A DNA stretch of 26,959 nt, from positions 1 through 26,959 of IMG/VR virus record IMGVR_UViG_3300040801_000995; one strand, given 5' to 3'. The position numbers and the translations under genes were made by a program. The stretch is from a virus. The notes under the pieces were generated by a model, which saw only the letters and a list, made by a program, of their open reading frames with translations, searched no databases and had not been told where the DNA came from. Positions 4,646 through 18,588 of this stretch are shown piece by piece; within the stretch, counting starts at the first letter, position 1; each line of letters starts with the position of its first letter.

Positions 4646-5890
4646 TTAAGATCCACATTTAGAATATCCACAATTTGAACACGTAAGACAACCATCTTGA
4701 AAAATAAGACTATCTTCACCACATTCTGGACAAATATTCTTTCCTTCACCCAATTCCAACCCATCTTTTATATAACTTTTTAACATTCTTTTTACACCCG
4801 CTTTCCAAGTACCAACAAATTCACCATCAATTTGTAAACTATCTATTAAGTTTATTACATGTGGAATTGGCATACCATGTCTCAATACAGCAGACACCAT
4901 CTTAGCAGTATCCCAATATTCCTTTTTAAATGCTCTACTCAATCCTCTAATTTCTTGTGGGTAGCCATCTTTATCTTTAAATAAGAAGTCATATCTCTTA
5001 TTATCCACTTCTACTCCATCTTCATCCTTTTCCTTCCACTTTACTTTTTTAATAATTCCTTTTTCAACATAAGATGGAACAGTAAAAGATTCTTGTAAAC
5101 CAGTAAATATTTCATATGGTTGACCATCCAGTAATCCAATAAATCCTATCCATTTTTCACCCTTGTTTACAAATCTTAATATATCACATTCAAGTTTTTT
5201 TGGTCTTCTTGGTGCTTGAGTTTCTTTAATTATATTATTTATTGTTTGTGTTTCATTTTTCTTTTTGTCTTTATCATCATTAGATATCAAAACACCAGAA
5301 CGAGAACCATCCCTATAAATAGTAATACCTTTACAGCCTACTTCATGTGCTTTTTTATACAATTTATCAACAGTTTCAATTGTAGTATCTGCTGGTAAAT
5401 TGACGGTCTTACTTATCGAATGATCCACAAATTTTTGCACACCACCTTGTAACTCCACACTTTCCAACCAATCAACATCATTAGCACATGCACCATAATA
5501 TGGAGATTTTTCAAATGCTTTTTGTAATTCTTCATCTGATGAAAATTTATCTATTTTGACATCATTTATCTTAGCCCAATCTAAAAATTTTGGATGAAAC
5601 ACCACATATTCTTGCCAATGATCTCCAACATCATCAATAAAATCTACCCTTGAATCCTTATCATTTGGATTAATTTTTCTTCTCCTTTTGTAATAAGGTA
5701 GAAATAATGGTTCTATACCAGATGTTGTTTGTGTCATTAACGAAACTGTATTATGTGATATAATTCCACCAGATAATTCGTAATAGTGATCGTTTTCAAC
5801 TTCAATATCCATAGTTTCCTTTCTTCCACTTTCAATATTAATTATTTCTACTTCATTATAATCTAAATTTTCAATATTTATTTTTTTCAT
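4646..5890 (-). CDS. nrdJ: Ribonucleotide reductase NrdJ, C-terminal fragment with C-intein
   Basis: 414 residues. Residues 1-47 are the C-terminal part of a split intein, ending GGIISHN with the usual His-Asn. The extein starts at T48 (TVSLMTQTTSGIEPLF), which joins seamlessly to the TIAPAG end of the N-fragment and rebuilds the conserved RNR finger loop. The rest is the last third of a class II, adenosylcobalamin-dependent reductase, including GCKGITIYRDGSR. The C-terminal cysteine cluster is CPECG, then GCLTCSNCGYSKC, typical of NrdJ and thought to re-reduce the active site. The fragment is useless alone; trans-splicing must ligate it. Its start overlaps the endonuclease gene upstream by 20 bases. 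Exteins together total about 860 residues, normal for NrdJ. Confidence 0.93.
   Translation of the reverse strand: MKKINIENLDYNEVEIINIESGRKETMDIEVENDHYYELSGGIISHNTVSLMTQTTSGIEPLFLPYYKRRRKINPNDKDSRVDFIDDVGDHWQEYVVFHPKFLDWAKINDVKIDKFSSDEELQKAFEKSPYYGACANDVDWLESVELQGGVQKFVDHSISKTVNLPADTTIETVDKLYKKAHEVGCKGITIYRDGSRSGVLISNDDKDKKKNETQTINNIIKETQAPRRPKKLECDILRFVNKGEKWIGFIGLLDGQPYEIFTGLQESFTVPSYVEKGIIKKVKWKEKDEDGVEVDNKRYDFLFKDKDGYPQEIRGLSRAFKKEYWDTAKMVSAVLRHGMPIPHVINLIDSLQIDGEFVGTWKAGVKRMLKSYIKDGLELGEGKNICPECGEDSLIFQDGCLTCSNCGYSKCGS
5750..5890 (-). mobile_element. C-terminal half of the split NrdJ intein 3
   Basis: 47 residues from its own ATG to the terminal Asn codon at 5750-5752. Block F-like TMDIEVENDHYYELSGG and block G IISHN are present, and the +1 residue is Thr. 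It pairs with the 114-residue N-half at 7040-7384. The site interrupts the conserved TIAPAG/TVSLM segment, a known intein insertion point in ribonucleotide reductases. Confidence 0.92.
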
Positions 5891-6983
5891 AAATTTTATT
5901 TATTTTTTGTATTACTTCTTTTATAGTTTTTTCTTTATTTTGTTTATAATCATCTTCCCAAATTATTATTACTTGTGTATTGAATTTTTCTTTTATCTTA
6001 TCTAATCTCTTATTATCATGTGTCCAGGTTTCTTTTACAAAATCTTGATTTATATCATATTTTTTAGGATTTTTATGCCAAAAATCACCATAAAATTCAA
6101 TAACCAAATTTATATCTTTAATATAGAGATCTGGTGAAATTATATTAAAATCTTCATCATAAATAAAAAACATATATTCATTATCACCATAATATATTTT
6201 ATCATATTTTTGTTCTAAATTATTTACAATTTCTTGGCAAAATTCTAAACCAATATTAGAATATCGATTATTTGATTTAAGTCTGTTCTTTATTAAATCT
6301 TTATATTTATCAAATCCATATTTTTTAATATATTTTTCTTTACTATTTTTGTTTGATTTTTTCCATTCATCATATTTTTCTTTACCATTTATCTCACCAT
6401 GCAATTGTATCATCTTTTCTAAAGTAATTGCACACTTTGAACAATTTTCTATATATTTCTTTTTTCCATCTTCTTCACCATATCTTTCAATAAATTTATC
6501 AAGCGATGAATTATTCTGATATTCGCTTAACTTTTTTTGTGCTAATTCTTGATCATTATTGCATTTTTCTAACCAATATTCCATTGTTCTTGGTGAAACA
6601 TTCTTTGTTTTTTTCTCTAACGCATCTAAACATTTTTTTAAAAAAATATCATATTTCTTTTTACCTTCATCTTCACCATAACGCCTAATAAATCCATCTA
6701 AATCTTGTCTGGTATTTAATTTCCAATTTTCATATTTCTTCCTACCTTCATCTTCACCATATTTATTTATCATTTTTTGAAGTGATACTCCAGATTTTTT
6801 ATTTTTTTCTTTTAATTCTTCATATTTTTTTCTACCTTCATCTTCACCATATTTAAGAATATATTTTTCTAATGATGTTCCTCTTATAAATTTATAATAT
6901 AATTCTGATCCTTCGTCTTCACCATATTTATCTATCAATTCTTTATATTTATTAGGATATGATATTTTTTTTATTTTTTTCAT
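5871..6983 (-). CDS. Free-standing Vsr-fold homing endonuclease with KYGEDEG repeats
   Basis: 370 residues. The N-terminal two thirds hold seven imperfect copies of a KYGEDEGRKKYEEWK-like unit (near residues 20, 45, 75, 102, 168, 195 and 221), probably a modular DNA-binding array. The C-terminal 120 residues are a Vsr-type (very short patch repair) nuclease domain: SPDLYI with D285, IEFYGDFWHKNP with H303, and the IIIWEDDY strand at 340-346. The gene lies exactly between the N- and C-halves of the split NrdJ intein. This is the fractured-gene arrangement in which a Vsr-like endonuclease is presumed to home into intein-free nrdJ alleles. Unlike nearly every neighbour it has a good Shine-Dalgarno sequence (AAGGAG), and that sequence is buried in a hairpin. 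Confidence 0.88.
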   Translation of the reverse strand: MKKIKKISYPNKYKELIDKYGEDEGSELYYKFIRGTSLEKYILKYGEDEGRKKYEELKEKNKKSGVSLQKMINKYGEDEGRKKYENWKLNTRQDLDGFIRRYGEDEGKKKYDIFLKKCLDALEKKTKNVSPRTMEYWLEKCNNDQELAQKKLSEYQNNSSLDKFIERYGEEDGKKKYIENCSKCAITLEKMIQLHGEINGKEKYDEWKKSNKNSKEKYIKKYGFDKYKDLIKNRLKSNNRYSNIGLEFCQEIVNNLEQKYDKIYYGDNEYMFFIYDEDFNIISPDLYIKDINLVIEFYGDFWHKNPKKYDINQDFVKETWTHDNKRLDKIKEKFNTQVIIIWEDDYKQNKEKTIKEVIQKINKIYEKNKY

Positions 6984-7030
6984 AACTATTGCTCCTTATT
7001 TTTATTCTATATATTAAAGAGCAATAGTCA
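6983..7030 (-). promoter_or_regulatory. Hairpin sequestering the endonuclease ribosome binding site
   Basis: Read on the minus strand, the 7030-7015 arm pairs with the 6998-6983 arm over 16 bp. Ten are contiguous Watson-Crick pairs (ACTATTGCTC with GAGCAATAGT), and two G.U wobbles lie in the extensions. The loop is 16 A/T-rich bases. The whole AAGGAG (6997-6992) and the A of the ATG are inside the stem. T4 homing endonuclease genes such as I-TevI are silenced on read-through transcripts by just such hairpins and are translated only from a late promoter that omits the 5' arm. The loop contains TATATAGAATA, which might serve as a promoter element, but that part is weak. Confidence 0.72.
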
Positions 7031-7039
7031 AAAATATCA

Positions 7040-7384
7040 TTATTTTTTCTGAATTATTTTATCACCAATTTTCAATTCTTCAGCTTTCTTCCATATGGCT
7101 TCTTTATCATTCAATTTAACAAGAAATTTATGTTCTAAAGTAGATTCTATTGTAGCATCATTTTCTAATGATATTATTTTTGTTTCTGATTCACCATTCC
7201 AATATAGTTTGGTTATTTTATTCTTCTTTCCATCTATATTTTCTACATAAATATCTTTATGGACATCTAACCATATGTTTTTCAATCCCCTAAATTTATC
7301 TAAATCATATCCATTAACTAAAAATAATTGTGCAAGTGTTATCTCTCCGTTATCTGTTTTTATTTTAGTATCCTCAACTAAACA
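7040..7384 (-). mobile_element. N-terminal half of the split NrdJ intein 3
   Basis: 114 residues (1371-1484) plus stop. It begins at Cys (TGT 7382-7384) directly after TIAPAG and shows block A (CLVEDTKIKTDNGEITLAQL), block B with T-L-E-H (IESTLEHKFLV) and a final IGDKIIQ strand before the stop. The split falls at the usual endonuclease position. With 47 residues in the C-half, the total is 161, the size of a mini-intein. Confidence 0.92.
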
Positions 7385-10300
7385 ACCAGCTGGGGCAATT
7401 GTAAGTAGTGCAATATTTCTCCTACCATACTTTTCCATATCAACTTTTAATTGTGGATCTAAATCAAACAATCTATTAAGAAATGGATTATTTTTTTCTT
7501 TTTCAGAATCATAGATTTTAAATTTTCCTCTTTCTTTTGCTAAATTAACAGATTCTTTAAATGCATTTAATGCTAATGTTTGGTGAACTTTTATTGAAAA
7601 ATTTGTAGCTTCTTTAGTTCCATATTTTATTCCTAATGCAGCTAACATATCACCTTCACCAGTTACACCAGTACCAGTTCTTCTACCAATCTCACACTTA
7701 CTTCTAATTCTTTGCCAAAGATTCTTTTCATAGAATTTAGTGTCTTCAGATTCTGGATCAGATTCTATTTTATTTAAAATCTTATCTATTTGTTCTAACT
7801 CAATATCTACAATATCATCCATATATCTCTGAGCAGTTCTAACATATTTAGAAAATTTATCGAAATTAAATTTAGCATCTTTTGTAAAAGGATTTTCGAC
7901 ATAACTATACAAATTCAATAGGAGCAAACGGCACGAATCCGCATCACATAATACGATTTCTCCACAATTAAGCTGATTTACATTCACATATTTCTTTTTT
8001 CCATTCTTAGTTAGTTCTTCAAATCCAGTAAAATAGTTATGAAAATCATCAACAGTTCCATTATATACATCTTCATATCCATCTTCAATAACTGAAACAA
8101 CTTTATGATTATAAACTTCAGCACTTTCTGAAACTTCTTTGAAATTTTTAAATCCATGTTTAGTTCTTAATCTACATGATGTATTTAATTCTTTACATTT
8201 ATCTTCCCATTCAGATAATTTTGGAATTCTATTTAATTCAAATTTTAAATCAGAATATATTTTAACTTGTTCTTCTTTTGTTTTAGTTGCTTTTAATAGA
8301 TATGCATTATTTACACTATTTGTTCTTTTATCTTTAATATCCTTATTGGTATTTAAATATTTATTTGAACATTCTGAACTACAAAAAGACACTTCTCTTT
8401 TAAAATAATTAATTTGAAATGGTTCTCCACATTCTTCACAATATTTAGTTACAAGAACTTCATTATTTGATATTTCTGCATCATAACCATTATCTAAAGC
8501 TTTTTTATATGTTTTAACCAATCTTGGATCAACATCAATATTATCATATCCTAATTCTAAAGCAATTTTTTTAGATAAAGTAATCACATTACCCAATTGT
8601 CTATATTCAACTAAAACTTGTGGTAAATTATTTTCTTTTGCATATTCTTGCCAATCTTTATATGAAATTCTTCTATCTAATTTTTTTGTTAATACCTTAA
8701 AATGTTCAATTATTTCATCATTAGAAATATTAGAATAATTTGGATTACTTTCACCTGGATGTGATGCAAAATTAAATTTCCACTTATCTTCCATTTTATG
8801 ATATGGATTTTTATTGCCTTCCATCATTAATCCATGATATTTATCATGTTCTTTTTTAGTTAATAATTCTAAGTTATCTAAAGAATTATTCTTACTATTA
8901 AAGTCTTTATGATGAATCACATACCCTTTATCTATTTTATTTCCTGTAAATTGTTCATAAATAAATCTATGTTCTGATTTAGGTTTAGAAAACTTTCCAT
9001 CATTTATCCAAAAATAATCTGAACTTCTTGAATTAGATTTAAAAATATCATCAAAAGATGCTTCCCATTTAGTCATAATATGGAGACTGTCACCCTTTAC
9101 TAAATCTTTAGCTTCTTTATAAGAACCATCTTTAAGTCTAAATTTATGATTTCCAGTTACTCTAATTGAATGTCCACCTTCGATATTAACTTTATAAATT
9201 TTTTGATTAAAATTACTAATTCTTGGGTTTCTCATTGTTCTAATGCACAATTCACCATTGTTATCTAAGGTATAAACAGGAATATCATTTCCTTCTTCTG
9301 CTAATTGTTTAATAGAAACATAATTTCTACCATCAGCAACAGAAACCATTGTATCTCCAACCACACATGGATTTGTTCCAATACTTTTAAATCCTTGATC
9401 AGCATAACAATCTGGAATAGATTCCTTTTCTATAGTGTCCCAGAAAAGAACACCTGGTTCTGCACTTTTATAATTATTCTCAATCAATTTATCCCATATT
9501 TCCTTTGGATCTATTTCTTTTGTTTGTATAGGATTTTCAGACACAATTGGAAATTGTTGAATATATTTTTTTTCATTGTTTAGAGCATCCATAAATGCAT
9601 CATCAATTTTAACAGAAATATTTGCACCAGTAACTTTTGTTGTATCTAATTTAGCATCTATAAAGGCTTTTGAATCTATTGATTTGACATGGGTTGATAG
9701 CATAAGAGCACCCCTTCTCCCACTATTATGAACATAAAAACCATTAGCCCAAAACAAATGAGTATTTTCTAATGTTAAATCATAAACCTCAGAATCTTTT
9801 TCATAAAAATCCTTGGAAACTAATTCATCTTGATATAAATTTGATTCATTTTTTAATTCTACTTTATCTTTTTTCAATCTTTCAATAGTATTTAAAGATA
9901 AATATTGAGAATTATCTGGAACATAATTAAAATCATTATAATTAGATTTAATAAGTATATCTTTACTTTTATAATTGGATATAAAACAATCTCTTTTTGT
10001 TTCTAAAATATTTTCAGAAACTTTACAACTATGTAAAGCAGATTCATAAAATTTAGTTTTACTCGATGCACCAGGTACAGATAAAGTATATAAATCTTTC
10101 CAACCCTTATTACTTCTATCTTCTTTAGATATTTTAGATAAAATACCATAGGTTTGTAAAATTAATTTAACATCAGTTAAAAATTCTCTATTAATTGAAT
10201 GAAATCTATATGATTTCTTTTTCTTTGCATAAGACCCATCAGCATCAAAATATCCAGATATAAATGCCATTTGAACTTTTTTATTTGATTTCTTAATTAA

Positions 10301-11494
10301 TTCTGGAAATTTAATTTTATCACTTTTTTCTTTTGCAATAAAATTATCTATTAAGAAGTCATATAAATATTGTGAGTTTATTCTCAAATTAATCCAATTA
10401 CCTTTATTATATTTTTCATTTAAATTTTTTCCAAATTGTTCTTTAAATATTTTTTTAAGTTTATTTATTATATTTGGTCTTTTAGAATCACAAGCCAATG
10501 ATATTTCAGTTGCTATATGGTTTTGTGTTTCATTTGATATTTTTTTATATATTGATCCATCACCATACATATAACCCAATAAATAGGCAATATCATCATT
10601 TAAATATTTTGGTAAATTTAATTCTTGTATTCTATTTCCATATTGTTTTTCTTTTTTTATTAAAGGTAATAAATCTATTTTATTATTTAGATTTCCATTT
10701 ATCATACTCAATTTTTCACCAATTTTAACGTCCTTTATTCTTTTTTCTCCTTTTAAAGTATGAAAAATATGATCTTCGCTACATATTATTTCATTTCCAT
10801 ATTTTGTAGTTACTTTAATAGTATCTTTTGTGTTTTTTAACTTATTAATGACTTTAACCCATCCATTTTCAGTCCAAACTTCCATTCCGATACTTACATC
10901 TTTTATTTTAATTAAACCATCTTTTGTTAAAATATTTGTATCATATCTTAAACATTGTGCTACTTCTCTAATGCTATTAGAATATCTTTCCATAAATGGA
11001 ACTACGCCAGTTGATGTTAATGCAGCATTTTTAACATGAGTTCCACTTGGTCTAATATGTTCCAATGTTGTTCCAACACCAGCTCTCCTTTTACATAATT
11101 GAATTATTTCTTGGTCTGTTCTTAAAACTGAACCATAAGAATCTTCTGCATTACCATCACCTTTTTCTTGCGCACCAACTACAAAACAATTAGATATTGA
11201 AGATATTTGAAAATCATTACCAATACCTGCCATTGGACTACCTTGTGGTATAATATATTTGAAATCTTTCATTGAATCAAATATTTCATCTTCATTTAAT
11301 GGATTTGTATATTTACTTTCAATTCTAGCTATTTCTTTTGCAATTCTTCTATGCATATCCTCTGGTGATTTTTCATATAAATTACCTTCTGAATCTTTTA
11401 ATGCATATTTATTAATCCATACATTTGCTGGTAATTCTTCACCATTAAAATATTTGAGTGTTTCCTTTAATACTTCTTCTCTTGAATATTTCAT
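7040..11494 (-). CDS. nrdJ: Ribonucleotide reductase NrdJ, N-terminal fragment with two full inteins and an N-intein
   Basis: 1484 residues. Extein segments are 1-180, 591-709 and 1177-1370. It reduces ribonucleotides to deoxyribonucleotides using adenosylcobalamin. The N-terminus (SREEVLKETLKYFNGEELPANVW) is typical of class II enzymes. C103 (SNCFVV) and C1188 (DSCRLL) fit the redox pair. The catalytic N-x-C-x-E motif reads N708-P-C1177-G-E1179 once intein 2 (710-1176) is removed, so C1177 is the predicted thiyl cysteine. Intein 1 (181-590) carries a LAGLIDADG endonuclease, intein 2 an HNH endonuclease, and residues 1371-1484 are the N-half of split intein 3. The remaining third of the enzyme is encoded at 4646-5890. 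Three inteins make up about two thirds of this fragment. Confidence 0.95.
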   Translation of the reverse strand: MKYSREEVLKETLKYFNGEELPANVWINKYALKDSEGNLYEKSPEDMHRRIAKEIARIESKYTNPLNEDEIFDSMKDFKYIIPQGSPMAGIGNDFQISSISNCFVVGAQEKGDGNAEDSYGSVLRTDQEIIQLCKRRAGVGTTLEHIRPSGTHVKNAALTSTGVVPFMERYSNSIREVAQCLRYDTNILTKDGLIKIKDVSIGMEVWTENGWVKVINKLKNTKDTIKVTTKYGNEIICSEDHIFHTLKGEKRIKDVKIGEKLSMINGNLNNKIDLLPLIKKEKQYGNRIQELNLPKYLNDDIAYLLGYMYGDGSIYKKISNETQNHIATEISLACDSKRPNIINKLKKIFKEQFGKNLNEKYNKGNWINLRINSQYLYDFLIDNFIAKEKSDKIKFPELIKKSNKKVQMAFISGYFDADGSYAKKKKSYRFHSINREFLTDVKLILQTYGILSKISKEDRSNKGWKDLYTLSVPGASSKTKFYESALHSCKVSENILETKRDCFISNYKSKDILIKSNYNDFNYVPDNSQYLSLNTIERLKKDKVELKNESNLYQDELVSKDFYEKDSEVYDLTLENTHLFWANGFYVHNSGRRGALMLSTHVKSIDSKAFIDAKLDTTKVTGANISVKIDDAFMDALNNEKKYIQQFPIVSENPIQTKEIDPKEIWDKLIENNYKSAEPGVLFWDTIEKESIPDCYADQGFKSIGTNPCVVGDTMVSVADGRNYVSIKQLAEEGNDIPVYTLDNNGELCIRTMRNPRISNFNQKIYKVNIEGGHSIRVTGNHKFRLKDGSYKEAKDLVKGDSLHIMTKWEASFDDIFKSNSRSSDYFWINDGKFSKPKSEHRFIYEQFTGNKIDKGYVIHHKDFNSKNNSLDNLELLTKKEHDKYHGLMMEGNKNPYHKMEDKWKFNFASHPGESNPNYSNISNDEIIEHFKVLTKKLDRRISYKDWQEYAKENNLPQVLVEYRQLGNVITLSKKIALELGYDNIDVDPRLVKTYKKALDNGYDAEISNNEVLVTKYCEECGEPFQINYFKREVSFCSSECSNKYLNTNKDIKDKRTNSVNNAYLLKATKTKEEQVKIYSDLKFELNRIPKLSEWEDKCKELNTSCRLRTKHGFKNFKEVSESAEVYNHKVVSVIEDGYEDVYNGTVDDFHNYFTGFEELTKNGKKKYVNVNQLNCGEIVLCDADSCRLLLLNLYSYVENPFTKDAKFNFDKFSKYVRTAQRYMDDIVDIELEQIDKILNKIESDPESEDTKFYEKNLWQRIRSKCEIGRRTGTGVTGEGDMLAALGIKYGTKEATNFSIKVHQTLALNAFKESVNLAKERGKFKIYDSEKEKNNPFLNRLFDLDPQLKVDMEKYGRRNIALLTIAPAGCLVEDTKIKTDNGEITLAQLFLVNGYDLDKFRGLKNIWLDVHKDIYVENIDGKKNKITKLYWNGESETKIISLENDATIESTLEHKFLVKLNDKEAIWKKAEELKIGDKIIQKK
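7967..9367 (-). mobile_element. NrdJ intein 2 with HNH homing endonuclease
   Basis: 467 residues (710-1176), inserted between TNP and CGEI, inside the catalytic loop. Splicing blocks: CVVGDTMV at the start, GNHKFRL as block B (N-H rather than T-x-x-H), and VYNGTVDDFHNYFT as block F. The end is VNVNQLN followed by Cys, so the usual penultimate His is Leu. The endonuclease has an HNH core (VIHHKDFNSKNNSLDNLELL, H861/H862, N874, H883) followed by a C-x2-C...C-x3-C zinc-finger element (CEECG to CSSEC). It is contiguous and should splice in cis. Confidence 0.92.
9725..10954 (-). mobile_element. NrdJ intein 1 with LAGLIDADG homing endonuclease
   Basis: 410 residues (181-590), inserted between REVAQ and SGRRGALM. 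It begins at Cys (CLRYDTNIL) and has block B as ICSEDHIF. Two dodecapeptide motifs follow, YLLGYMYGDG (about 304-313) and FISGYFDADG (about 411-420), each with an acidic catalytic residue. It ends GFYVHN with Ser at +1. All splicing residues are standard, so both the intein and the monomeric LAGLIDADG nuclease appear intact. Confidence 0.94.
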
Positions 11495-11535: not shown

Positions 11536-12204
11536 TTAAACAAAGTTTATATCACCTAAGTTATCTAAATATCCTTTTTGTTTTAATTCCATTATAATTA
11601 CTGTTGCATACTTTTTTTCTAATAATTTATACATATTGAATATATTATCTGTAAAATAATATGATAATGCAACAAATATTTCACATCTAGTGTATTTATG
11701 TTTCAATTTTTTAATTAATAATTCAAAATAATCATTAAAATCTTCCCTTCTAGGTTTTCTTCTATTTTGATTAAAATCTAAATCAGTATCATTTGTTAAT
11801 ATTTCATGGACATCTTGTTCCAAATTAATATCATTTAAATAATCCATATTATTAATAGATTCATACTCATATCTAGAACCAGTTTCTACAGAAACTTCTT
11901 CATTAAATATAGTTGATGAATATTCATCCACATCATCTTTTTCTTCTATTTTACCTGCAAACAAAACATCTCTTTCTAAGGAATGTTTTCCTTCAATTTT
12001 ATGTTTATTTTGCTGATTTATAAATTTGAAATCGAAATCATTATTTGATTCATTATATTTATCATCTTCATCATCTATATCAATATCCAAATCATTATTT
12101 GATTCATTATATTCATCATCTATATCAATATCTAAATCAACACATTCCAATTCATCTTTTTCATCATATTCAATATCATCATTTTCATTCTCTTTATCAT
12201 TCAT
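11536..12204 (-). CDS. Acidic repeat protein of unknown function
   Basis: 222 residues, between gene 41 and nrdJ. Residues 1-60 are extremely acidic and contain a duplicated 18-residue unit (DLDIDIDDE...YNESNND, twice). The middle is polar and probably disordered. The C-terminal 75 residues look like a folded, helical domain (EDFNDYFELLIKKLKHKY, FVALSYYFTDN, LLEKKYATVIIMELKQKGYL). The acidic part could mimic DNA or bind a basic partner; that is inference. Placement among replication genes suggests a replication-linked role, but no family is recognised. Confidence 0.75.
   Translation of the reverse strand: MNDKENENDDIEYDEKDELECVDLDIDIDDEYNESNNDLDIDIDDEDDKYNESNNDFDFKFINQQNKHKIEGKHSLERDVLFAGKIEEKDDVDEYSSTIFNEEVSVETGSRYEYESINNMDYLNDINLEQDVHEILTNDTDLDFNQNRRKPRREDFNDYFELLIKKLKHKYTRCEIFVALSYYFTDNIFNMYKLLEKKYATVIIMELKQKGYLDNLGDINFV
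12035..12136 (-). repeat. 54-bp direct duplication inside the acidic protein gene
   Basis: The 24-base string starting at 12035 recurs at 12089, 54 bases later, and the flanking bases also repeat with a few changes. It encodes two copies of a DIDIDDE...YNESNND unit. The second-strand reading frames over this stretch are Ser/His/Tyr-rich artefacts. Confidence 0.8.
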
Positions 12205-12222
12205 ATGATTTTATTTATTTTT

Positions 12223-13314
12223 TTATTTAGTTGTACCAATAAATTGATCATTTTCCATCAATAGAAATTTGGTATTAAAATCAAATCTTATTTGTTCATT
12301 TGTATATTCACCATCTCTCAATTTTAATACTTTTAAAATATATTTATTTTCCTTTTTCATTGCAGCATTTCTAATAATACCTAAAACGACATCTGATGTT
12401 TCTGCTACAGCTTTAGATTCTGGTATATCTTTTAATCCAATATCACTCCCACCCCAAACAGATTTATCTGTTTGTGTTGCAGTTATCATTGCAAGTTCGT
12501 GTTTATCTGCAATATATCTCAAACCTTCAGCAAAATGCTTACCTTTTAAAAATAACATATTTCCAATGTCTTGACCTTTTTCCAGACCCATAATATTAAT
12601 ATAATCAACACACACAGCATGTATTTTTATCTTTTTAACTTCTTCTAATTTATGAATAAAATTATCTAATTGGGTTACTGTCATAGAGCTTGTAGGAAAT
12701 TTTTTAACTATTAATTTACCTGGTGTTTGTTCAAACATACCACCACTACCAGCAGCATATTTCATTTCATTAATTTTATTTTTCATATATGTTTCATCCT
12801 TAGATAAATCATTATATTGATCAATAGGTATCTTTAATCTTTGAGATCCCATTCTTTTAATACATTTATGTTCAGCCATTTCTAATGAAACATATAATAC
12901 ATTTTTTCCTTGGTCTGCAATTTTTACACTAATGTTATTTAACCACATAGAATTATGGGATAAAATATCATTGGTATAAAATCTATGATTATCATCTCCA
13001 ATTTCCATATCATACATATTTTCTTTCTGCTTTGTGTTTTCTATTGAAACAACGACATCTGGACCATCTTTAGTTAAAATAACATTATTTGGCTTCAAGT
13101 CTTTCACAAAGACTTCTTCTAAATCTTCATTGAAGACAATATGTGTATCTGCACATTCTAAATAATGTCTTTTTGTTTTTAAGATCCACTTTTCATATTC
13201 TATAGTTTTTCCAATTTTTTTAATATCAGACCAACCACTATCAGTTTCAACTTCCCAACCATCTACATTAAGTGTATCAATAAATTTTCTTTCTATATTT
13301 TCTGATTTTAACAT
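12223..13314 (-). CDS. 41: Replicative helicase gp41, C-terminal fragment with long C-intein
   Basis: 363 residues. Residues 1-121 are the larger part of an atypically split intein. From S122 the extein reads SMWLNNISVKIAD, completing the Walker A motif GETNVGK-S begun at 15437-16150. The DnaB/gp41 core follows: VLYVSLEMAEHKCIKR, as in T4 gp41 VLYISMEMAEEVCAKR, then the Walker B strand IHAVCVDYINIM and the ITATQTDKSVWGGSD segment. The enzyme unwinds DNA 5' to 3' at the fork as a hexamer. N- and C-exteins total about 447 residues, close to T4 gp41 (475). No helicase exists until trans-splicing restores the P-loop. Confidence 0.94.
   Translation of the reverse strand: MLKSENIERKFIDTLNVDGWEVETDSGWSDIKKIGKTIEYEKWILKTKRHYLECADTHIVFNEDLEEVFVKDLKPNNVILTKDGPDVVVSIENTKQKENMYDMEIGDDNHRFYTNDILSHNSMWLNNISVKIADQGKNVLYVSLEMAEHKCIKRMGSQRLKIPIDQYNDLSKDETYMKNKINEMKYAAGSGGMFEQTPGKLIVKKFPTSSMTVTQLDNFIHKLEEVKKIKIHAVCVDYINIMGLEKGQDIGNMLFLKGKHFAEGLRYIADKHELAMITATQTDKSVWGGSDIGLKDIPESKAVAETSDVVLGIIRNAAMKKENKYILKVLKLRDGEYTNEQIRFDFNTKFLLMENDQFIGTTK
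12952..13314 (-). mobile_element. C-terminal part of the atypically split gp41 intein
   Basis: 121 residues. Unlike a normal C-intein (about 40 residues), it contains block B (YLECADTHIVF), the following strands (VFVKDLKPNNVILTKDG), block F (ENMYDMEIGDDNHRFYTND) and block G (ILSHN), with Ser at +1. The complementary N-part at 15437-15535 has only 32 residues. The break is therefore just after block A rather than at the endonuclease position. Confidence 0.92.
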
Positions 13315-13382
13315 CTATATTTTTACTTTATTTTTATTTACTTATCCATAATTAGATAATTCTTATTATAATTTTTTAAAGA

Positions 13383-13401: not shown

Positions 13402-13406
13402 AATTT

Positions 13407-14093: not shown

Positions 14094-14101
14094 TTCAATC
14101 T

Positions 14102-14344
14102 TTAGTTTTTAAATTCTATATCATCAAATTCAAATAATATATTAGAAAAAATAGGGTAGTTTTTATCATTCAATTTTAAAAATCCAAACTTATAATCACC
14201 AACAACATCTTGTTCAATGTTCTTTTGAATTGGGATAAATGATTTAAAATTTTCTACTATTTTACTAAATTCATATGATATATGAATTTCTTGTTTATCT
14301 TTAATATTATCTTCTATAAATTTTATTATTTTATCTTCATTCAT
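14102..14344 (-). CDS. Unknown 80-residue protein in the gene 41 break
   Basis: 80 residues, acidic, with helix at the N-terminus (EDKIIKFIEDNIKDKQ) and strands after it (YKFGFLKLNDKNYPIF). Its start overlaps the end of the endonuclease gene by eight bases, and its stop is eight bases from the ART-like gene, so all three are probably co-translated cargo. It could be a partner or inhibitor of the ART-like protein, but no homology supports that. Confidence 0.65.
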   Translation of the reverse strand: MNEDKIIKFIEDNIKDKQEIHISYEFSKIVENFKSFIPIQKNIEQDVVGDYKFGFLKLNDKNYPIFSNILFEFDDIEFKN

Positions 14345-15431
14345 ATTTTAAAAATTTTTTACATTTTTCTATAACTAATTTTGGGTTTTCTTTAAATTCA
14401 TCTTCCCATATAACTAAAACATCAAATCCATTTTCTTTTGCTAAATTTATCTTATATTCATCCATTTTCCATATATCTTCTGATTTCAAATGTTTTAAAT
14501 ATGGATGTGGATTGTCACATTTTTTAAATATTTTTGGGTTTGCATGATATACATCACCATTAAATTCTATTATCTTTTTCCTACTTATATTTGTATAATC
14601 ATATTTCTTATTTGTTATATTGTATTCGTAATTTTTTTCACCATAAAAAACATATTCATTATTTTCCAACATTCTAAATAATTCTTGTGATACCTCAGAA
14701 TATCCTATTTTTAGTTTTCCATTTTTATTTAAACTTTCAATCCATTTTTCTTGCCTATTTATAAAAACTTCCAAACCTTTCTTATAACCATATTTTTCAA
14801 TGCAGATTTTCCTTGAAAATGTTTCTTGTCTTTCTTTTATTTTTTCTTTTGCTTCTTCTTTATTAAAACCTTTTTTAATCCAATAATCTATTTGTGTTGT
14901 ATTTACATCTTTATATAATTCTGGTTTATTTCTTCTTTTGTTCCATGTTTTCTTATGTAAATTGTTCAACACATATTCAATATTCAATGTGGATTCTTCT
15001 TCGTTAAATCCTCTTTTTAACCAATATTCCTTACATTGATGACTTCTTTCTTTATTAAAATTTGGATTTTCTTTTAGTTTTTTGTTGATTGTTTTTTTAT
15101 ATGATTTTTTTCTATCTTTATTAAGTTTATCTAATCTTTGGACTGCATCTTCTTTTGACAATTCTAACATTTTTATACCATATTCTATAGTATATGTGGC
15201 TCTACTTTTTGAAATACAATTTTTAGATTTACATATTTTTTTATATCCTTTAGTATATCCTATTAAGGAACAAACATCACCACAAAAAACACATCTTGGT
15301 CTATTTATTTTTGATATAAATTTATCATAATAATCTTCAATAGTAATATCGTTTTTATGTGACATTTTTATATGTTTCTGAATATTGTTTATTCCGTTAA
15401 ATTCTTTACCACATAGTTTACATTTTATCAT
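14337..15431 (-). CDS. Free-standing zinc-finger Vsr-fold homing endonuclease
   Basis: 364 residues. It begins with a C2H2 zinc finger (C4-x2-C7-x12-H20-x4-H25) and continues with a second cysteine cluster (C47, C50, then C67 and C72). Residues 135-235 hold repeated KKGFNKEEAKEKI-like helices that probably contact DNA. The C-terminal 115 residues form a Vsr-type nuclease: D278 in KYDYTN, EFNGDVYHANP with H296, and VLVIWEDEF at 338-346. It lies five bases after the stop of the gene 41 N-fragment, so it is placed to home into the GETNVGK/S codons of intein-free helicase genes. Its DNA-binding region differs completely from that of the nrdJ endonuclease. Confidence 0.85.
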   Translation of the reverse strand: MIKCKLCGKEFNGINNIQKHIKMSHKNDITIEDYYDKFISKINRPRCVFCGDVCSLIGYTKGYKKICKSKNCISKSRATYTIEYGIKMLELSKEDAVQRLDKLNKDRKKSYKKTINKKLKENPNFNKERSHQCKEYWLKRGFNEEESTLNIEYVLNNLHKKTWNKRRNKPELYKDVNTTQIDYWIKKGFNKEEAKEKIKERQETFSRKICIEKYGYKKGLEVFINRQEKWIESLNKNGKLKIGYSEVSQELFRMLENNEYVFYGEKNYEYNITNKKYDYTNISRKKIIEFNGDVYHANPKIFKKCDNPHPYLKHLKSEDIWKMDEYKINLAKENGFDVLVIWEDEFKENPKLVIEKCKKFLKYE

Positions 15432-15436
15432 ATAAA

Positions 15437-15535
15437 TTAATTTTCTATTGATTTAAAAAAATCATAAATATTAATCCGTTTAATTTCGTTATTGTTTTTA
15501 TTACGAACTGTAATTAAAGTATTTGGTGAAAAACA
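15437..15535 (-). mobile_element. N-terminal part (32 residues) of the atypically split gp41 intein
   Basis: Only block A and the following helix are present (CFSPNTLITV, then INIYDFFKSIEN and stop). Known atypically split inteins, such as AceL-TerL with a 25-residue N-part, have this layout. The insertion is at GK/S of the P-loop, so unspliced helicase cannot bind ATP properly. Confidence 0.9.
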
Positions 15536-16150
15536 TTTTCCAACATTAGTCTCTCCTATAATGACATTTAATGACTGATAATCCCAACCACCACTCAACA
15601 CAGTATCCAAACAACTCCAACCAGTATTAATCTTATGTATAACTTCATCTTGTCTATGGACATTTGGATCATCAAAGTCAGAACCTAAATCAGAATCATC
15701 ATCATCTATTAAATCTATTTCATTAGAAATATTTTTTATTTGATTAACAATTTCTTTAACATTATCATAATCAGTTTCATCAACATTTCTAACTTTTTCA
15801 ATGGATTTTGTTATATTGTCTCTTAATTTATTAGACAACTTCCATGATTTAAATCTTGGCTCCAACCACCCATCTTCATATTGAGAATTATCTTGTTTAA
15901 GTATTAATTTTAATGTATTTGCATCCATTTCTCTAACTTCAGAATGCATTTTAACCATAGCAAAAATTTGTTTTGCTGAAGGTACTACTTTAACTTTACT
16001 GACTATATATTCTTCTCTGATTATACTATAAACAAACCTAATATCTTCATTTTTAAAATAATGTGGTTCTACTTTTGTTATTTGATCACTATTATCTAAT
16101 ATATGACGGAAATATACTTTTTCCATCAATACATTCATTTTTTCTGACAT
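15437..16150 (-). CDS. 41: Replicative helicase gp41, N-terminal fragment with short N-intein
   Basis: 237 residues. Residues 1-205 are the N-terminal domain and linker of a gp41/DnaB-family helicase, with an acidic linker around LIDDDDSDLGSDFDD. It ends in GWSCLDTVLSGGWDYQSLNVIIGETNVGK: the first half of the RecA-like core, cut within the Walker A motif between Lys and Ser. Residues 206-237 are a 32-residue N-intein starting C206 (CFSPNTLITVRNK), followed by the stop. The start is four bases from the uvsX C-fragment stop, matching the adjacency of uvsX and gene 41 in T4-type phages. Confidence 0.92.
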   Translation of the reverse strand: MSEKMNVLMEKVYFRHILDNSDQITKVEPHYFKNEDIRFVYSIIREEYIVSKVKVVPSAKQIFAMVKMHSEVREMDANTLKLILKQDNSQYEDGWLEPRFKSWKLSNKLRDNITKSIEKVRNVDETDYDNVKEIVNQIKNISNEIDLIDDDDSDLGSDFDDPNVHRQDEVIHKINTGWSCLDTVLSGGWDYQSLNVIIGETNVGKCFSPNTLITVRNKNNNEIKRINIYDFFKSIEN

Positions 16151-16153
16151 TGA

Positions 16154-16846
16154 TTAATCTTTATTATTTTTTAGTTTTTCTTGAACTTCTTTCAGTTCGT
16201 CTTCAAGTTCTTCTTCCATTCTTTTGATACTTTTCTGTTGTTCTTCATAACTTGAATATGAAAAATATTTTTCTATTATTGGCTCTAATGCATCTAACAC
16301 ATCATTATTAAATATCTCCGCAGTGTGTAATTCTTTTGTATAAAATGTTTTTCCTAAATGTCTTACATACCATTTAGTTCCACCTGGAATAAAGTTTCCA
16401 TCTTTATCAGCTTTACCTTTTGCAATTCCAACTTTTTCATAATTTTCTTCTGTACAAAATGCTTCCAAACCTTTATATGGATTAGTTCCTTGATCAAAAT
16501 TTATATCAAATTTAATTTTCATTGGTTTTGCTAACCTATTCTTTATAGATTTTGCGGTTACTTTAATACCATCTTGTCCAATATCTTGAACATAATCATC
16601 CTTACTAAAAGATGTTGGATCTGATGTTTTATCATCCAGTTTTGCAATAGACATCAATACTACTGTTGATGCTGAATATTTAACACCTTCACCACCACTC
16701 ATAACAGCAGTAGGAAATAAATCCTGTGAATTGTGTGATACTATCCCATTTTCCATTAAATAATGATGTGAATCTTTGATTTGTATATCAAAAACTTTCT
16801 GAGATTGTATTTTATTAATAGATTTAATTTTTAATTCTTTAAACAT
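16154..16846 (-). CDS. uvsX: Recombinase UvsX, C-terminal fragment with C-intein
   Basis: 230 residues. Residues 1-39 are a C-intein ending GIVSHN. From S40 the extein reads SQDLFPTAVMSGGEGVKYSA, matching T4 UvsX after its NHT motif (MFSKTVMTGGTGVMYSA), and continues through the C-terminal part of the RecA/UvsX core. The last 30 residues are charged and helical (EEELEDELKEVQEKL). UvsX coats ssDNA and drives strand invasion for recombination-dependent replication. The extein total with the N-fragment is about 406 residues (T4 UvsX 391). It follows the ART-like gene by 18 bases. Confidence 0.93.
   Translation of the reverse strand: MFKELKIKSINKIQSQKVFDIQIKDSHHYLMENGIVSHNSQDLFPTAVMSGGEGVKYSASTVVLMSIAKLDDKTSDPTSFSKDDYVQDIGQDGIKVTAKSIKNRLAKPMKIKFDINFDQGTNPYKGLEAFCTEENYEKVGIAKGKADKDGNFIPGGTKWYVRHLGKTFYTKELHTAEIFNNDVLDALEPIIEKYFSYSSYEEQQKSIKRMEEELEDELKEVQEKLKNNKD
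16730..16846 (-). mobile_element. C-terminal half of the split UvsX intein
   Basis: 39 residues from its own ATG to Asn (16730-16732). Block F is KVFDIQIKDSHHYLMENG and block G IVSHN, with Ser at +1. Length and motifs are those of a canonical C-intein. Confidence 0.92.
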
Positions 16847-16864
16847 GATTTTATATTATTTTTT

Positions 16865-17593
16865 TTATTCTTCATCATAGACTTTTATTCTATTTGGTGA
16901 AATATTATCAACTAAATAATAACCACCATCATAATTTGGATCTTTATAAATTTTTATATCTAAATTTTTAGTATTTATTTCATATATAATCCATTTATCG
17001 TTTATTTTATATTTACTATTATAGAATTTGTTTAACTGATATTCCCTCTTCATACTATTTATTAAGTTATAACATTTATCAACTTTACTACAAACATATA
17101 TTCTATCTAAATGATTTGATATTTTTGATTTAGATTTTGGTGATATACCATTTTTTATAATATTTTTATTAAATTGTTGAATAGATAAATGATATAATTT
17201 ATCTGGTAACTTTATTTCAACATCAAATTTGGGTTCAAATATAATAGTTATTTCTTTTACAATATTATAACTTTGTTTCAAAAATTCTTTGTTAAATTTA
17301 TTAACATATTTTTTATCTTTTAAATTTACCAATTGCATTGTTGAGGGGAACCATCCAAACCTATCAATAAACAAATTACATATATAATCCAATTCAGTAC
17401 AATAAATATCTTTTGTAGTCTTTATAGGGTTATAAATTAATTTTAATTTATTTTCATCTATCGTTAAATCAAAATTATAATTTAATAATGACAATTCATT
17501 AAATACAGATTTATATGTTTTTTCTATATTAATGGTTTTTAATGTTTCATTAATAATAAATTCATAATATGTTTCTATAAAATTATGTTTCAT
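16865..17593 (-). CDS. Predicted ADP-ribosyltransferase-fold protein, sole cargo of the uvsX break
   Basis: 242 residues, paralogous to the protein at 13407. After an unrecognised N-terminal domain of about 128 residues comes an ART-like part: KLYHLSIQQFNKNIIKNGI with H135, LDRIYVCSK with Y166, the strand WIIYEINTKNLDIKIYKDP with D218, and GGYYLVDNISPNRIKV with Y225. No Vsr, HNH, GIY-YIG or LAGLIDADG motif is present. It lies exactly where a homing endonuclease would be expected between two intein halves. Its ATG shares a base with the stop of the uvsX N-fragment (TAATG), so translation is coupled. Possible roles are host or phage target modification, RNA 2'-phosphate removal, or an unknown nuclease; the fold call is from motifs only. 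Confidence 0.55.
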   Translation of the reverse strand: MKHNFIETYYEFIINETLKTINIEKTYKSVFNELSLLNYNFDLTIDENKLKLIYNPIKTTKDIYCTELDYICNLFIDRFGWFPSTMQLVNLKDKKYVNKFNKEFLKQSYNIVKEITIIFEPKFDVEIKLPDKLYHLSIQQFNKNIIKNGISPKSKSKISNHLDRIYVCSKVDKCYNLINSMKREYQLNKFYNSKYKINDKWIIYEINTKNLDIKIYKDPNYDGGYYLVDNISPNRIKVYDEE

Positions 17594-17943
17594 TAATCTA
17601 CATACTGCTTTTTTTCTTTTTCATAATTTTCATTTAATATTTTTGAAACTTCATCATATGCTAAAATTATATCATCATCTTCTAAATCAATTGCAGCTTT
17701 CCAGCAATTTGCATTTTCATCAGATTTCCATTCTTTTTTTACTAAAAATTTATGATTTGGTGTACAAGATATTTTATCACCATTTTCCAATTCTATCTCA
17801 AAAACTTCACTATTTTGATACTCAAAAACATCTTCTACTACTTTACTTCCATCTAAAGTTTTTACTACATCACCTTTAATTATATCAGATATATCTATAA
17901 TTTCTCCATTTGACATTTGTACTTTATTACCTTCAGGCATACA
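17593..17943 (-). mobile_element. N-terminal half of the split UvsX intein
   Basis: 116 residues plus stop, starting at TGT 17941-17943. Blocks A and B are canonical (CMPEGNKVQM; ISCTPNHKFLV). The last 20 residues are a charged helix and may help the two halves associate. With the 39-residue C-half the total is 155. Confidence 0.92.
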
Positions 17944-18588
17944 CATATAAATATGATTTGTTGCAACCATAGGTATACCAAGATAACCCATATCAGATGT
18001 AATTACCCTAAATAAGGATTTCAATCCTTTTGCCCTAGACATATCCACTTTTATTTTTCCATCATGTGCATCTTCTATTTCTTTGTTTGATGCTAATTGA
18101 CCAATAGAATCTAAAACAATTAACCATTTTCCTATTTCTAATCCTTCTTGTTTCTTTTGTTTTAATGATTCTAAAATTTGAGACAACCCGATTTTTATTT
18201 CTTCCACCATATTATTTCTCAAAATTCTAAATCTAGATTCATCAGTGTTTATACCATATCTTTCCATTTCTTCTCTTTCTACTGCATATTCAGTATCAAT
18301 AAATATGATATTATATCCATCTTTTTGTGCATTTCTTGCAATATTATAGCATATATAACTCTTCCCACAACCAGGAGGACCTGCAAAAATTGTAATTCTA
18401 TTATCTGCAACTCCACCTTTTCTAATATTCTTAGAAAGAAGTGCATTCATAACATAATTTCCGGTGTCTATAAATGTTTTTTCTTTTTCACTTTCTTCTA
18501 CTATTATTGTTGTTTTTTTAGATAATGTTGAAAATACATCATCCAAATCAGTCATATTCAATCCAGTTGAACTTTTCTTTTTTGCCAT
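17593..18588 (-). CDS. uvsX: Recombinase UvsX, N-terminal fragment with N-intein
   Basis: 331 residues. Residues 1-215 are the N-terminal extein: Walker A GPPGCGKS (70-77), the NIIFIDTEYAV strand, Walker B WLIVLDSIGQLAS, and a break at VATNHIYM, next to the conserved NH that contacts ATP in RecA-type proteins. Residues 216-331 form an N-intein that begins CMPEGNKVQMSNGEI and has block B CTPNHKFLV. A long charged tail (YEKEKKQYVD) precedes the stop, so the N-half is 116 residues. This is the first gene of the leftward block and should be made early, as in T4. Confidence 0.94.
   Translation of the reverse strand: MAKKKSSTGLNMTDLDDVFSTLSKKTTIIVEESEKEKTFIDTGNYVMNALLSKNIRKGGVADNRITIFAGPPGCGKSYICYNIARNAQKDGYNIIFIDTEYAVEREEMERYGINTDESRFRILRNNMVEEIKIGLSQILESLKQKKQEGLEIGKWLIVLDSIGQLASNKEIEDAHDGKIKVDMSRAKGLKSLFRVITSDMGYLGIPMVATNHIYMCMPEGNKVQMSNGEIIDISDIIKGDVVKTLDGSKVVEDVFEYQNSEVFEIELENGDKISCTPNHKFLVKKEWKSDENANCWKAAIDLEDDDIILAYDEVSKILNENYEKEKKQYVD

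What the first reader, a model, noticed from the sequence alone, without database searches (positions are those of the whole stretch)
4646..18588. Three essential phage genes in one block are each fractured by a split intein with cargo in the break
uvsX, gene 41 and nrdJ are each encoded as two genes with complementary intein halves. Extein junctions rejoin perfectly: NHIYM/SQDLF, GETNVGK/SMWLN and TIAPAG/TVSLM. Split inteins flanking Vsr-like endonucleases are a known arrangement from marine metagenomes. Three in one run, sitting in recombinase, helicase and reductase, means DNA replication depends on three independent trans-splicing events. It could act as a timing or integrity checkpoint.
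Basis: partly seen in the sequence, partly recalled or inferred. Interest (0 to 1): 0.85.

Follow-up and report, generated by a model that had tools for sequence, protein, structure and literature searches.

The report
Three phage genes split by inteins
In a fragment of a very large bacterial virus, three DNA-copying genes are each cut in two by self-splicing protein elements; comparison with relatives indicates that these are mobile parasites that come and go, and that the gaps they make hold changing passenger genes, here including a gene with an ADP-ribosyltransferase fold.

Summary
uvsX, gene 41 and nrdJ are each two ORFs carrying complementary intein halves; the junctions rejoin as in intact relatives. 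Nearest named records are huge phages (634-735 kb). Relatives point to ordinary mobile split inteins. Occupancy is patchy (uvsX 9 of 28 contigs, gene 41 13 of 28) and unlinked (Fisher p 0.69). Intein halves are under purifying selection; one pair of relatives shows recent transfer of the uvsX element; endonucleases decay to remnants. The gene 41 endonuclease models as Vsr/I-Bth0305I. One further contig has all three genes split. A timing checkpoint is not supported. The new part is the cargo: the window's uvsX break holds a protein whose C-terminal half has a KptA/ADP-ribosyltransferase fold, where relatives mostly carry an endonuclease; a paralogue sits in the gene 41 break, where the nearest relative has a Dam-type methylase; two other contigs hold TnpB in breaks. 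Verdict: a new variant of a known kind (fractured genes). Trans-splicing and homing are inferred, not shown.

The parts
17593..18588 (-). uvsX N-terminal half (215 aa extein + 116 aa IntN at 17593-17943)
   Evidence: phrog_97 UvsX-like E 1.2e-44; IntN aligns to the L156 contiguous intein, 45%
16865..17593 (-). cargo of the uvsX break: 242-aa protein, C-terminal half with KptA/ADP-ribosyltransferase fold; no endonuclease
   Evidence: AF2 model pLDDT 78.8, pTM 0.55; residues 123-240 vs Tpt1 8tfi Z 11.3, rmsd 2.3, 92 aligned; no HEN hit in this break
16154..16846 (-). uvsX C-terminal half (39 aa IntC at 16730-16846, then extein SQDLF...)
   Evidence: Pfam Intein_splicing E 2.3e-4, below its curated cut-off; IntC aligns to the L156 intein 103-142
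15437..16150 (-). gene 41 N-terminal half, with an atypically short 32-aa IntN at 15437-15535 after Walker A GETNVGK
   Evidence: IntN aligns to the L151 contiguous intein 1-27, E 6e-4
14337..15431 (-). cargo 1 of the gp41 break: 364-aa Vsr-like homing endonuclease
   Evidence: phrog_22677 E 7e-21; residues 233-364 vs Vsr 1cw0 Z 11.2, 245-364 vs I-Bth0305I 3r3p Z 10.2
14102..14344 (-). cargo 2 of the gp41 break: 80-aa protein, also in the gp41 breaks of L002 and L111
   Evidence: tblastn hits in 3 of 17 gp41 breaks; 47% to L111
13407..14093 (-). cargo 3 of the gp41 break: 228-aa paralogue of the uvsX cargo
   Evidence: 32% identity over 179 columns, E 1e-13; weak Tox-ART-HYD1 (E 0.065) and RNA 2'-phosphotransferase (E 0.07); no fold made of this one
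12223..13314 (-). gene 41 C-terminal half (121 aa IntC at 12952-13314, then DnaB-like extein)
   Evidence: DnaB_C E 3.9e-13; IntC vs VidaL 6vgv E 0.0016 and gp41-1 6qaz E 0.0024
7040..11494 (-). nrdJ N-terminal half, 1484 aa, ending in a 114-aa IntN (7040-7384)
   Evidence: TIGR02504 NrdJ_Z E 1.3e-89 (below its whole-protein cut-off, as expected for a half), Ribonuc_red_lgC E 1.2e-45
9725..10954 (-). contiguous LAGLIDADG intein inside nrdJ_N (site a, 410 aa)
   Evidence: Intein_splicing E 1.3e-36 and LAGLIDADG_3 E 8e-20 for the protein; length, end from intein_Cterm match
7967..9367 (-). contiguous HNH intein inside nrdJ_N (site b, TNP|C, 467 aa); also in relatives
   Evidence: HNH_3 E 1.9e-13; intein_Nterm E 1.7e-22; relatives
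5871..6983 (-). cargo of the nrdJ break: 370-aa homing endonuclease of the same family
   Evidence: phrog_22677 E 2.6e-27; 29% to the gp41 HEN, E 4e-9; homologue in the L108 nrdJ break
4646..5890 (-). nrdJ C-terminal half (47 aa IntC at 5750-5890, then extein TVSLM...)
   Evidence: Ribonuc_red_lgC E 1.1e-14

Best explanation
Three independent class-1 inteins have invaded essential replication genes of a huge phage and now exist in split form. Each gene makes two polypeptides whose intein halves associate, excise themselves and ligate the exteins (inferred). The gp41 and nrdJ elements spread by homing: the Vsr-like endonuclease in the break cuts the uninterrupted allele of a co-infecting phage, and repair copies the module (inferred). 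The uvsX element has no endonuclease. Its break holds instead a gene with an ADP-ribosyltransferase fold, and the gp41 break has a paralogue of it behind its endonuclease. Because a precise double excision is needed to restore the host gene, breaks persist after the endonuclease decays and can take in or exchange passenger genes. The three elements are together in one 14-kb block because uvsX, gp41 and nrdJ are neighbours in these phages and each is a recurrent target, not because they act together.
For: Complementary halves, shown against contiguous inteins at the same uvsX and gp41 sites. Intact splice-site residues in all three: first residue C, HN at the end, then S, S or T. Purifying selection on intein halves in relatives, dN/dS 0.03-0.24 in 11 half-against-half comparisons. 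Patchy occupancy, uvsX 9 of 28 and gp41 13 of 28 contigs, unlinked. Recent transfer of the uvsX element between L108 and L159: intein dS 0.30-0.31 against extein 0.91-0.98, and nucleotide identity 98% and 94% in the bins at the two intein edges against 79-90% in the extein bins. Endonuclease decay: of 54 breaks, 45 show HEN similarity, 4 of them only 36-50 aa remnants, and 9 show none. Vsr/I-Bth0305I fold of the gp41 HEN. ART fold of the uvsX cargo. Cargo difference at one gp41 site: ART-like in the window, D12 methylase in its nearest relative L002. Same three splits in L108.
Against: No splicing or cleavage is shown by any tool here. Block B of the gp41 intein reads ADTH, not TxxH. The transfer signal is clear in one uvsX pair only: in the other two pairs with L106 the intein dS (0.61-0.88) is near that of the exteins (L106/L108, 0.76-0.83) or somewhat lower (L106/L159, 0.75-0.78 against 1.11-1.27), and in L108/L159 the second IntN bin (84%) and most endonuclease bins (81-93%) are no more alike than the exteins. 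That element has its own HEN, unlike the window's. Inteins are less constrained than exteins (extein dN/dS 0.03-0.12). gp41 occupancy is somewhat clustered on the tree (7 changes, shuffle mean 9.5, 39 of 500 shuffles at or below), so part of it is inherited. Foldseek alone gave the HEN no significant match (best E 0.21; Vsr 0.47); the fold call rests on VIA Z-scores of a model with pTM 0.46. The window is a 27-kb fragment, so intact copies elsewhere in its genome are not excluded directly.
Confidence: 0.87

Rival explanations
1. Timing or integrity checkpoint: the three trans-splicing events are kept because they delay or gate replication.
For: The three genes are all in DNA replication and recombination, and L108 carries the same three splits. 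The intein halves are under purifying selection, but that is also required merely to keep essential genes working.
Against: In 11 of 28 contigs uvsX and gp41 are both empty. Presence at uvsX is random on the tree and not associated with gp41. L156 has a contiguous uvsX intein at the same site, and L136 and L151 contiguous gp41 inteins, so splitting itself is not conserved.
Confidence: 0.04
2. The splits are assembly errors, frameshifts, recoded stop codons or pseudogenes.
For: Metagenomic contig; Lak phages, among the relatives, are reported to use an alternative code (PMC12363816, passage). A frameshifted HEN does occur in L111.
Against: Same architecture in independent contigs (L002 for gp41; L106, L108, L157, L159, L162 for uvsX; L108 for nrdJ). 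Stops are TAA and readthrough is not coding. dN/dS well below 1.
Confidence: 0.02
3. On the cargo alone (compatible with the best explanation): the ART-like genes are ordinary phage genes that landed in the breaks by chance and have nothing to do with the inteins.
For: The family is free-standing elsewhere, as far as neighbouring ORFs show: next to an intact uvsX in LR756502, between a DnaB-like helicase and a ribonucleotide reductase in L097, and in Lak phages. In the loci seen, only the window has it in breaks.
Against: Two paralogues in two of three breaks of one contig, one of them where relatives mostly carry an endonuclease. Other non-nuclease or unusual cargo recurs in breaks: methylase, the 75-91 aa protein in 3 of 17 gp41 breaks, TnpB in 2 breaks.
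Confidence: 0.45

Closest known systems
Fractured genes with split inteins and Vsr-like (EDxHD) homing endonucleases (Dassa et al. 2009, doi 10.1093/nar/gkp095; paper not held, content recalled)
   Same: Gene in two ORFs with complementary intein halves, Vsr-like endonuclease between; helicase and NrdJ are among the genes recalled from that work
   Different: uvsX target; uvsX break without endonuclease and with an ART-fold gene; extra ORFs in the gp41 break; three such genes plus two contiguous inteins in one 14-kb block
Atypically split inteins AceL-TerL, GOS-TerL, VidaL (recalled; VidaL is PDB 6vgv)
   Same: Very short N half without block B; long C half (their lengths recalled); the same intein type splits TerL-like genes in the relatives found here; VidaL is the best, though weak, PDB match of the gp41 IntC (E 0.0016)
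   Different: Here in gene 41 at GETNVGK|S; with TerL-like genes and an AAA ATPase it sits at a Walker A GK|[ST]; contiguous forms exist in L136 and L151
Vibrio phage vB_VmeM-32 (KU160494, isolated phage)
   Same: uvsX and gene 41 both fractured by split inteins with an ORF in each break (annotated SegG-like in uvsX; Vsr-like by eye in gp41); gene 43 also carries intein N and C parts in two ORFs
   Different: Other insertion sites (uvsX VSGG|TGA, gp41 GVN|TGKS); GIY-YIG-type endonuclease in uvsX; gene 43 broken into more pieces
AceL NrdHF split intein (PMC7891396, passages read)
   Same: Phage-like contig, ribonucleotide reductase gene in fractured organisation with an endonuclease between the halves
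   Different: Class 3 intein, GIY-YIG endonuclease, beta subunit gene
Jug phages (PMC12363816, passages read)
   Same: Huge phages with terL, nrdD and polymerase genes fragmented by introns, endonucleases and intein-domain proteins
   Different: Mostly group I introns; none found in the window

Membership tests
Fractured gene (split intein + HEN in the break) | gene encoded by two ORFs, each with one complementary intein half, exteins rejoining as in intact homologues | tested here: met
   three of three genes
Fractured gene (split intein + HEN in the break) | homing endonuclease gene in the break: gp41 and nrdJ | tested here: met
   phrog_22677 hits, a family of unknown function, tied to endonucleases by the fold
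Fractured gene (split intein + HEN in the break) | homing endonuclease gene in the break: uvsX | tested here: not met
   746-bp break holds only the ART-fold ORF; no HEN hit at E 1e-3 with the 12 HEN queries used
Vsr-like (I-Bth0305I) homing endonuclease | Vsr-type catalytic fold in the gp41 endonuclease | tested here: met
   1cw0 Z 11.2 (rmsd 4.0, 122 aligned), 3r3p Z 10.2 (rmsd 2.6, 95 aligned), above the rows ranked 7 and below (Z 4.5 and less); mitoribosomal chains at Z 6.8-9.0 lie between; Foldseek alone not significant
Vsr-like (I-Bth0305I) homing endonuclease | invariant acidic/His motif in the family alignment | tested here: met
   E289, G292, D293, H296, W342 and E343 invariant in 9 of 9 rows, both window HENs included; that they are catalytic is inferred
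Class 1 intein | Cys at position 1, block B TxxH, terminal HN, +1 nucleophile, in uvsX and nrdJ-c | tested here: met
   C1, TPNH, HN|S (uvsX); C1, TLEH, HN|T (nrdJ-c)
Class 1 intein | same residues in gp41 | tested here: inconclusive
   C1 and HN|S present; block B is ADTH without the usual Thr, ADxH also in the relatives aligned or listed
Atypically split intein | IntN much shorter than about 100 aa, block B in IntC | tested here: met
   gp41 IntN 32 aa, IntC 121 aa; same layout in L002 and the TerL-type loci
Intein (all three) | protein splicing activity | not testable with these tools
   needs expression; selection on halves is indirect
KptA/Tpt1 RNA 2'-phosphotransferase (ART superfamily), uvsX cargo | ART-like NAD-lobe fold | tested here: met
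   residues 123-240 vs 8tfi Z 11.3, rmsd 2.3, 92 aligned; Foldseek E 1.6e-5 to KptA, TM-score by query only 0.31
KptA/Tpt1 RNA 2'-phosphotransferase (ART superfamily), uvsX cargo | KptA N-lobe and full catalytic set | tested here: inconclusive
   N-terminal residues about 24-122 match ferredoxin-like S6 permutants (Z about 9); invariant H135, K153, R164 in the family, roles not tested

The most novel reading that the evidence does not exclude
Breaks made by split inteins in essential phage genes act as locked cargo bays. Once the intein is split, any imprecise deletion across the break kills the essential gene, so a gene inside it is protected and can travel with the module. In this lineage the bay has been re-loaded repeatedly: endonuclease, ART-fold enzyme, DNA methylase, TnpB (an RNA-guided nuclease that may take over homing), or nothing. 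The cargo is then selected for host take-over or counter-defence rather than for homing.
Probability: 0.3. Interest if true: 0.75.

Novelty: new variant of a known kind. Interest (0 to 1): 0.5.

Why it matters
Fractured genes have been known since 2009 (recalled), and inteins such as gp41-1 and NrdJ-1 are among the fastest split inteins in use (PMC7090010, passages). Here one block of genes in one phage lineage shows many stages of their life cycle, most of them at the same uvsX site: empty, contiguous, split with endonuclease, endonuclease fused to the C half, endonuclease decayed to a remnant, and other cargo. It supplies natural pairs for testing how split inteins arise and persist. It also gives uvsX and gene 41 split inteins, the latter atypically split, that could be tested as tools. 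If the cargo-bay reading holds, split inteins are also vehicles that fix accessory genes inside essential ones.

Tried and rejected
Checkpoint reading: rejected on the occupancy tests. Recoded stops: rejected. Group I intron: no Rfam match. Hitch-hiking of the HEN-less uvsX element on the nearby gp41 endonuclease: would predict association of the two sites; none seen. TnpB as a homing nuclease guided to the empty site in L110 and L137: best 16-base match of the break to the joined extein junction was 12 of 16 in both; no shuffle was run, I judge it chance level in such A+T-rich DNA, so no support. uvsX N half alone as query in viral contigs: no relative. HEN profile against PDB sequences: no hit at E 1 or below. 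ART-like family in bacterial genomes: 103 pattern stretches, none a relative. PADLOC: no hit for the two ART-like proteins or the 80-aa protein.

Rows and tables: the first automatic site table miscounted and was replaced; L162 uvsX is still called empty, which I corrected by hand to split, and L018 and L159 nrdJ are split at a further site (d) read from the ORFs. L110 was left out of the 28-row tree; L145, L147 and L150 show no uvsX in their loci and were also left out. Contigs that looked near-identical in the match tables were represented once (for example L017, L019, L026, L105, L112, L113), but two near-identical pairs stayed in the tree (L007/L029 and L024/L056), which can only lower the count of changes. 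The 54-break census leaves out duplicate TerL loci and L127, L132, L136, L144, L151 and L155. Only the best 80 of 106 uvsX relatives are listed.

Papers: Dassa 2009 was asked for twice and is not held; what is said of it is recalled. Passages only were read of PMC7090010, PMC7891396, PMC3653736, PMC2988022, PMC13096335, PMC7824862 and PMC12363816. 'split intein' + 'phage' + 'uvsX' gave 0 papers; 'UvsX' + 'intein' gave 9, of which I looked into three; 'TnpB' + 'intein' gave 17, 10 listings seen, none opened.

Full report
What is there. The window is a 26,959-base IMG/VR record of low G+C, with replication genes on the minus strand up to about 18.6 kb and structural-type genes on the plus strand after it. 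Its closest named relatives in the phage collection are uncultured phages of 634-735 kb (LR756501-LR756504, LR745206), then Lak phages and others. In transcription order the block reads uvsX_N, a 242-aa ORF, uvsX_C, gp41_N, three ORFs (364, 80, 228 aa), gp41_C, a 222-aa ORF, nrdJ_N, a 370-aa ORF, nrdJ_C. The extein families are clear: UvsX (phrog_97, E 1.2e-44), DnaB-like helicase (E 3.9e-13) and adenosylcobalamin-dependent ribonucleotide reductase (TIGR02504, E 1.3e-89).

The intein halves. uvsX has a 116-aa N half and a 39-aa C half. nrdJ has 114 and 47. Gene 41 has only 32 and 121, so its block B lies in the C half: an atypical split. Each starts with Cys and ends in HN followed by S (uvsX), S (gp41) or T (nrdJ). 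Block B is TPNH in uvsX, TLEH in nrdJ and ADTH in gp41. The halves are pieces of one intein. In L156 the same uvsX site holds a contiguous 142-aa intein, to which the window's halves align at 1-116 (45%) and 103-142 (37.5%). In L136 and L151 the gp41 site holds contiguous 154-aa inteins; the window's gp41 halves align to L151 at 1-27 and 35-154, and the C half to L136 at 41-154, while the N half was placed wrongly on L136. nrdJ_N carries two more, contiguous inteins: LAGLIDADG and HNH. The HNH one is shared with relatives (L002, L022, L103, L108, L152); the LAGLIDADG one was not seen in the loci where that site is visible.

The cargo. The gp41 break holds an endonuclease. Its model (pLDDT 76.4, pTM 0.46) aligns at its C-terminus with Vsr (1cw0, Z 11.2, rmsd 4.0, 122 residues) and with the homing endonuclease I-Bth0305I (3r3p, Z 10.2, rmsd 2.6, 95 residues). 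Foldseek alone was not significant. The nrdJ cargo is related to it (29%, E 4e-9; phrog_22677 E 2.6e-27) and has a homologue in the nrdJ break of L108. The uvsX break holds no endonuclease. Its 242-aa protein is a paralogue of the third ORF of the gp41 break (32%, E 1e-13). The model (pLDDT 78.8, pTM 0.55) has a C-terminal half matching Tpt1/KptA RNA 2'-phosphotransferases (Z 11.3, rmsd 2.3, 92 residues; Foldseek E 1.6e-5, TM-score by query 0.31) and, less closely, other ADP-ribosyltransferases. The N-terminal part matches ferredoxin-like domains (Z about 9). The family is found in LR756501, LR756502, Lak phages (weakly, E 5e-4 to 3e-3) and the phage contigs L095-L101. By their neighbouring ORFs the copies examined look free-standing; one lies directly downstream of an intact uvsX and one between a helicase and a reductase. 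None was found in the collection of 84,980 prokaryote species genomes at the sensitivity.

Relatives. I fetched 80 uvsX relatives (of 106 found), 56 loci with the gp41-type C intein and 21 with a relative of the uvsX-type N intein, overlapping sets. Empty sites are common, and L002, the window's sister on the tree, has an uninterrupted uvsX and an uninterrupted nrdJ c site. At the window's uvsX site eight other contigs are split: a separate endonuclease ORF in L108, L157, L159 and L162, an endonuclease fused to the C half in L018 and L022, a 50-residue endonuclease remnant in L106, and TnpB in L110. In a tree of 28 contigs (window included) from joined exteins, the uvsX site is occupied in 9, counting the contiguous L156, and the gp41 site in 13. 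Occupancy changes at least 8 and 7 times. For uvsX this equals shuffled labels (mean 7.9, 341 of 500 at or below). For gp41 it is somewhat clustered (mean 9.5, 39 of 500 at or below). The two sites are independent (5 of 9 against 8 of 19, p 0.69; 6 independent pairs, no trend, too few to be decisive). Among the loci in which all three genes are seen, uvsX, gp41 and nrdJ-c are all split in the window and in L108; L110 has uvsX and gp41 split but its nrdJ was not seen. Vibrio phage vB_VmeM-32, an isolate, has uvsX and gp41 fractured at other sites and intein parts in two ORFs of gene 43.

Mobility and decay. Intein halves evolve under purifying selection (dN/dS 0.03-0.24 in the pairs), less strict than on the exteins (0.03-0.12). 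Between L108 and L159 the uvsX intein has dS 0.30-0.31 while its exteins have 0.91-0.98. Nucleotide identity is 98% and 94% in the bins at the intein edges and 79-90% in the extein bins, but the second IntN bin is 84% and the full endonuclease bins 81-93%. I read this as recent transfer with a conversion tract; the pairs with L106 do not show it as clearly. gp41 IntC dS is below that of the exteins in each of the five pairs compared. Of 54 breaks examined, 45 show endonuclease similarity, 4 of these only as remnants of 36-50 residues in breaks of 101-213 bp, and 9 show none; in two of the nine (L018, L022) the endonuclease is fused in frame to the C half instead. Named families other than endonucleases of these kinds occur in five breaks: ART-like in two (both in the window), a D12 adenine methylase in one (L002) and TnpB in two (L110 uvsX, L137 TerL; Pfam Cas12f1-like_TNB E 1.9e-21 and 1.7e-26). 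A small 75-91 aa protein recurs in 3 of 17 gp41 breaks.

Is the split copy the only one? Six records were searched with gp41 and five with uvsX. The five with a split gp41 and the five with a split uvsX gave the two halves and no intact copy; the sixth gp41 record (L159) has an uninterrupted gp41, as expected. The longest, 388 kb, is L078, a distant relative split at another uvsX site. Three records also gave a weak match at E about 3e-4: in G003 and G004 in the neighbouring recombinase or helicase gene, in G010 within the uvsX C half. The window gives one match to the uvsX N extein and two gp41 halves plus a weak match in uvsX; nrdJ was not searched so. The window's own genome is incomplete, so this is inference for it.

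Mechanism, shown and inferred. Shown by sequence: the halves, their complementarity, their conservation, the patchiness and, for relatives, the signs of transfer; by models, the endonuclease and ART folds. Inferred from established intein and homing biology: association of halves, splicing, cutting of empty alleles, and repair by the phage's own recombination. That route runs through UvsX itself, as described for T4 (PMC2988022, passages). A phage that carries this uvsX element therefore needs trans-splicing to make the protein that homing uses. This is a dependence, not evidence of a checkpoint.

Novelty. Fractured genes with Vsr-like endonucleases are a known kind (Dassa 2009, recalled), as are atypically split inteins (recalled) and gene fragmentation in huge phages (PMC12363816, passages). 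What I did not find in print, within the listings, is a uvsX split intein whose break has no endonuclease and holds an ART-fold gene, or TnpB inside a split-intein break; those libraries hold only open-licence papers. I therefore rate it a new variant of a known kind.

Noticed in passing
L110:3181-4425 and L137:5704-6900: TnpB (Cas12f1-like TNB + OrfB_IS605) is the only long ORF on that strand in split-intein breaks of uvsX (L110) and TerL (L137), where relatives have a homing endonuclease. No guide-like match to the empty site was found.
   Followed up: partly
L102-L155: The gp41-type atypical intein also splits TerL-like genes and an AAA ATPase; in the N halves listed the cut follows a Walker A type GK, and the C exteins begin with S or T: a family apparently specialised on P-loops.
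   Followed up: partly
L018:9998-11941 and L022:10002-11936: Endonuclease (DUF7487 in L018) fused in frame to the N-terminus of the uvsX C-intein half, a form between split and contiguous inteins.
   Followed up: partly
window 14102-14344: 80-aa protein of unknown function that recurs in the gp41 breaks of L002 and L111 (47% identity to L111), in L111 next to a frameshifted endonuclease.
   Followed up: partly
L018:14055-18069, L159:11410-14303, L107:1840-5665: nrdJ is split at further sites in relatives (site d in L018 and L159, the HNH site b in L107), each with its own endonuclease-like ORF; at least four intein sites in this one gene.
   Followed up: partly
window 11536-12204: 222-aa protein with acidic low-complexity N-terminus, conserved between gp41 and nrdJ in L002 (68% over 168 columns) and seen by eye near gp41 in huge-phage records; no PHROGs hit.
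   Followed up: no
window 24357-25729: Two adjacent genes are tandem paralogues (58% identity over 231 columns), unnamed structural-type genes.
   Followed up: no
window 74-166: 15-base tandem repeat (6.2 copies, 96% matches) in a Gln/Gly-rich reading frame that runs off the left end.
   Followed up: no
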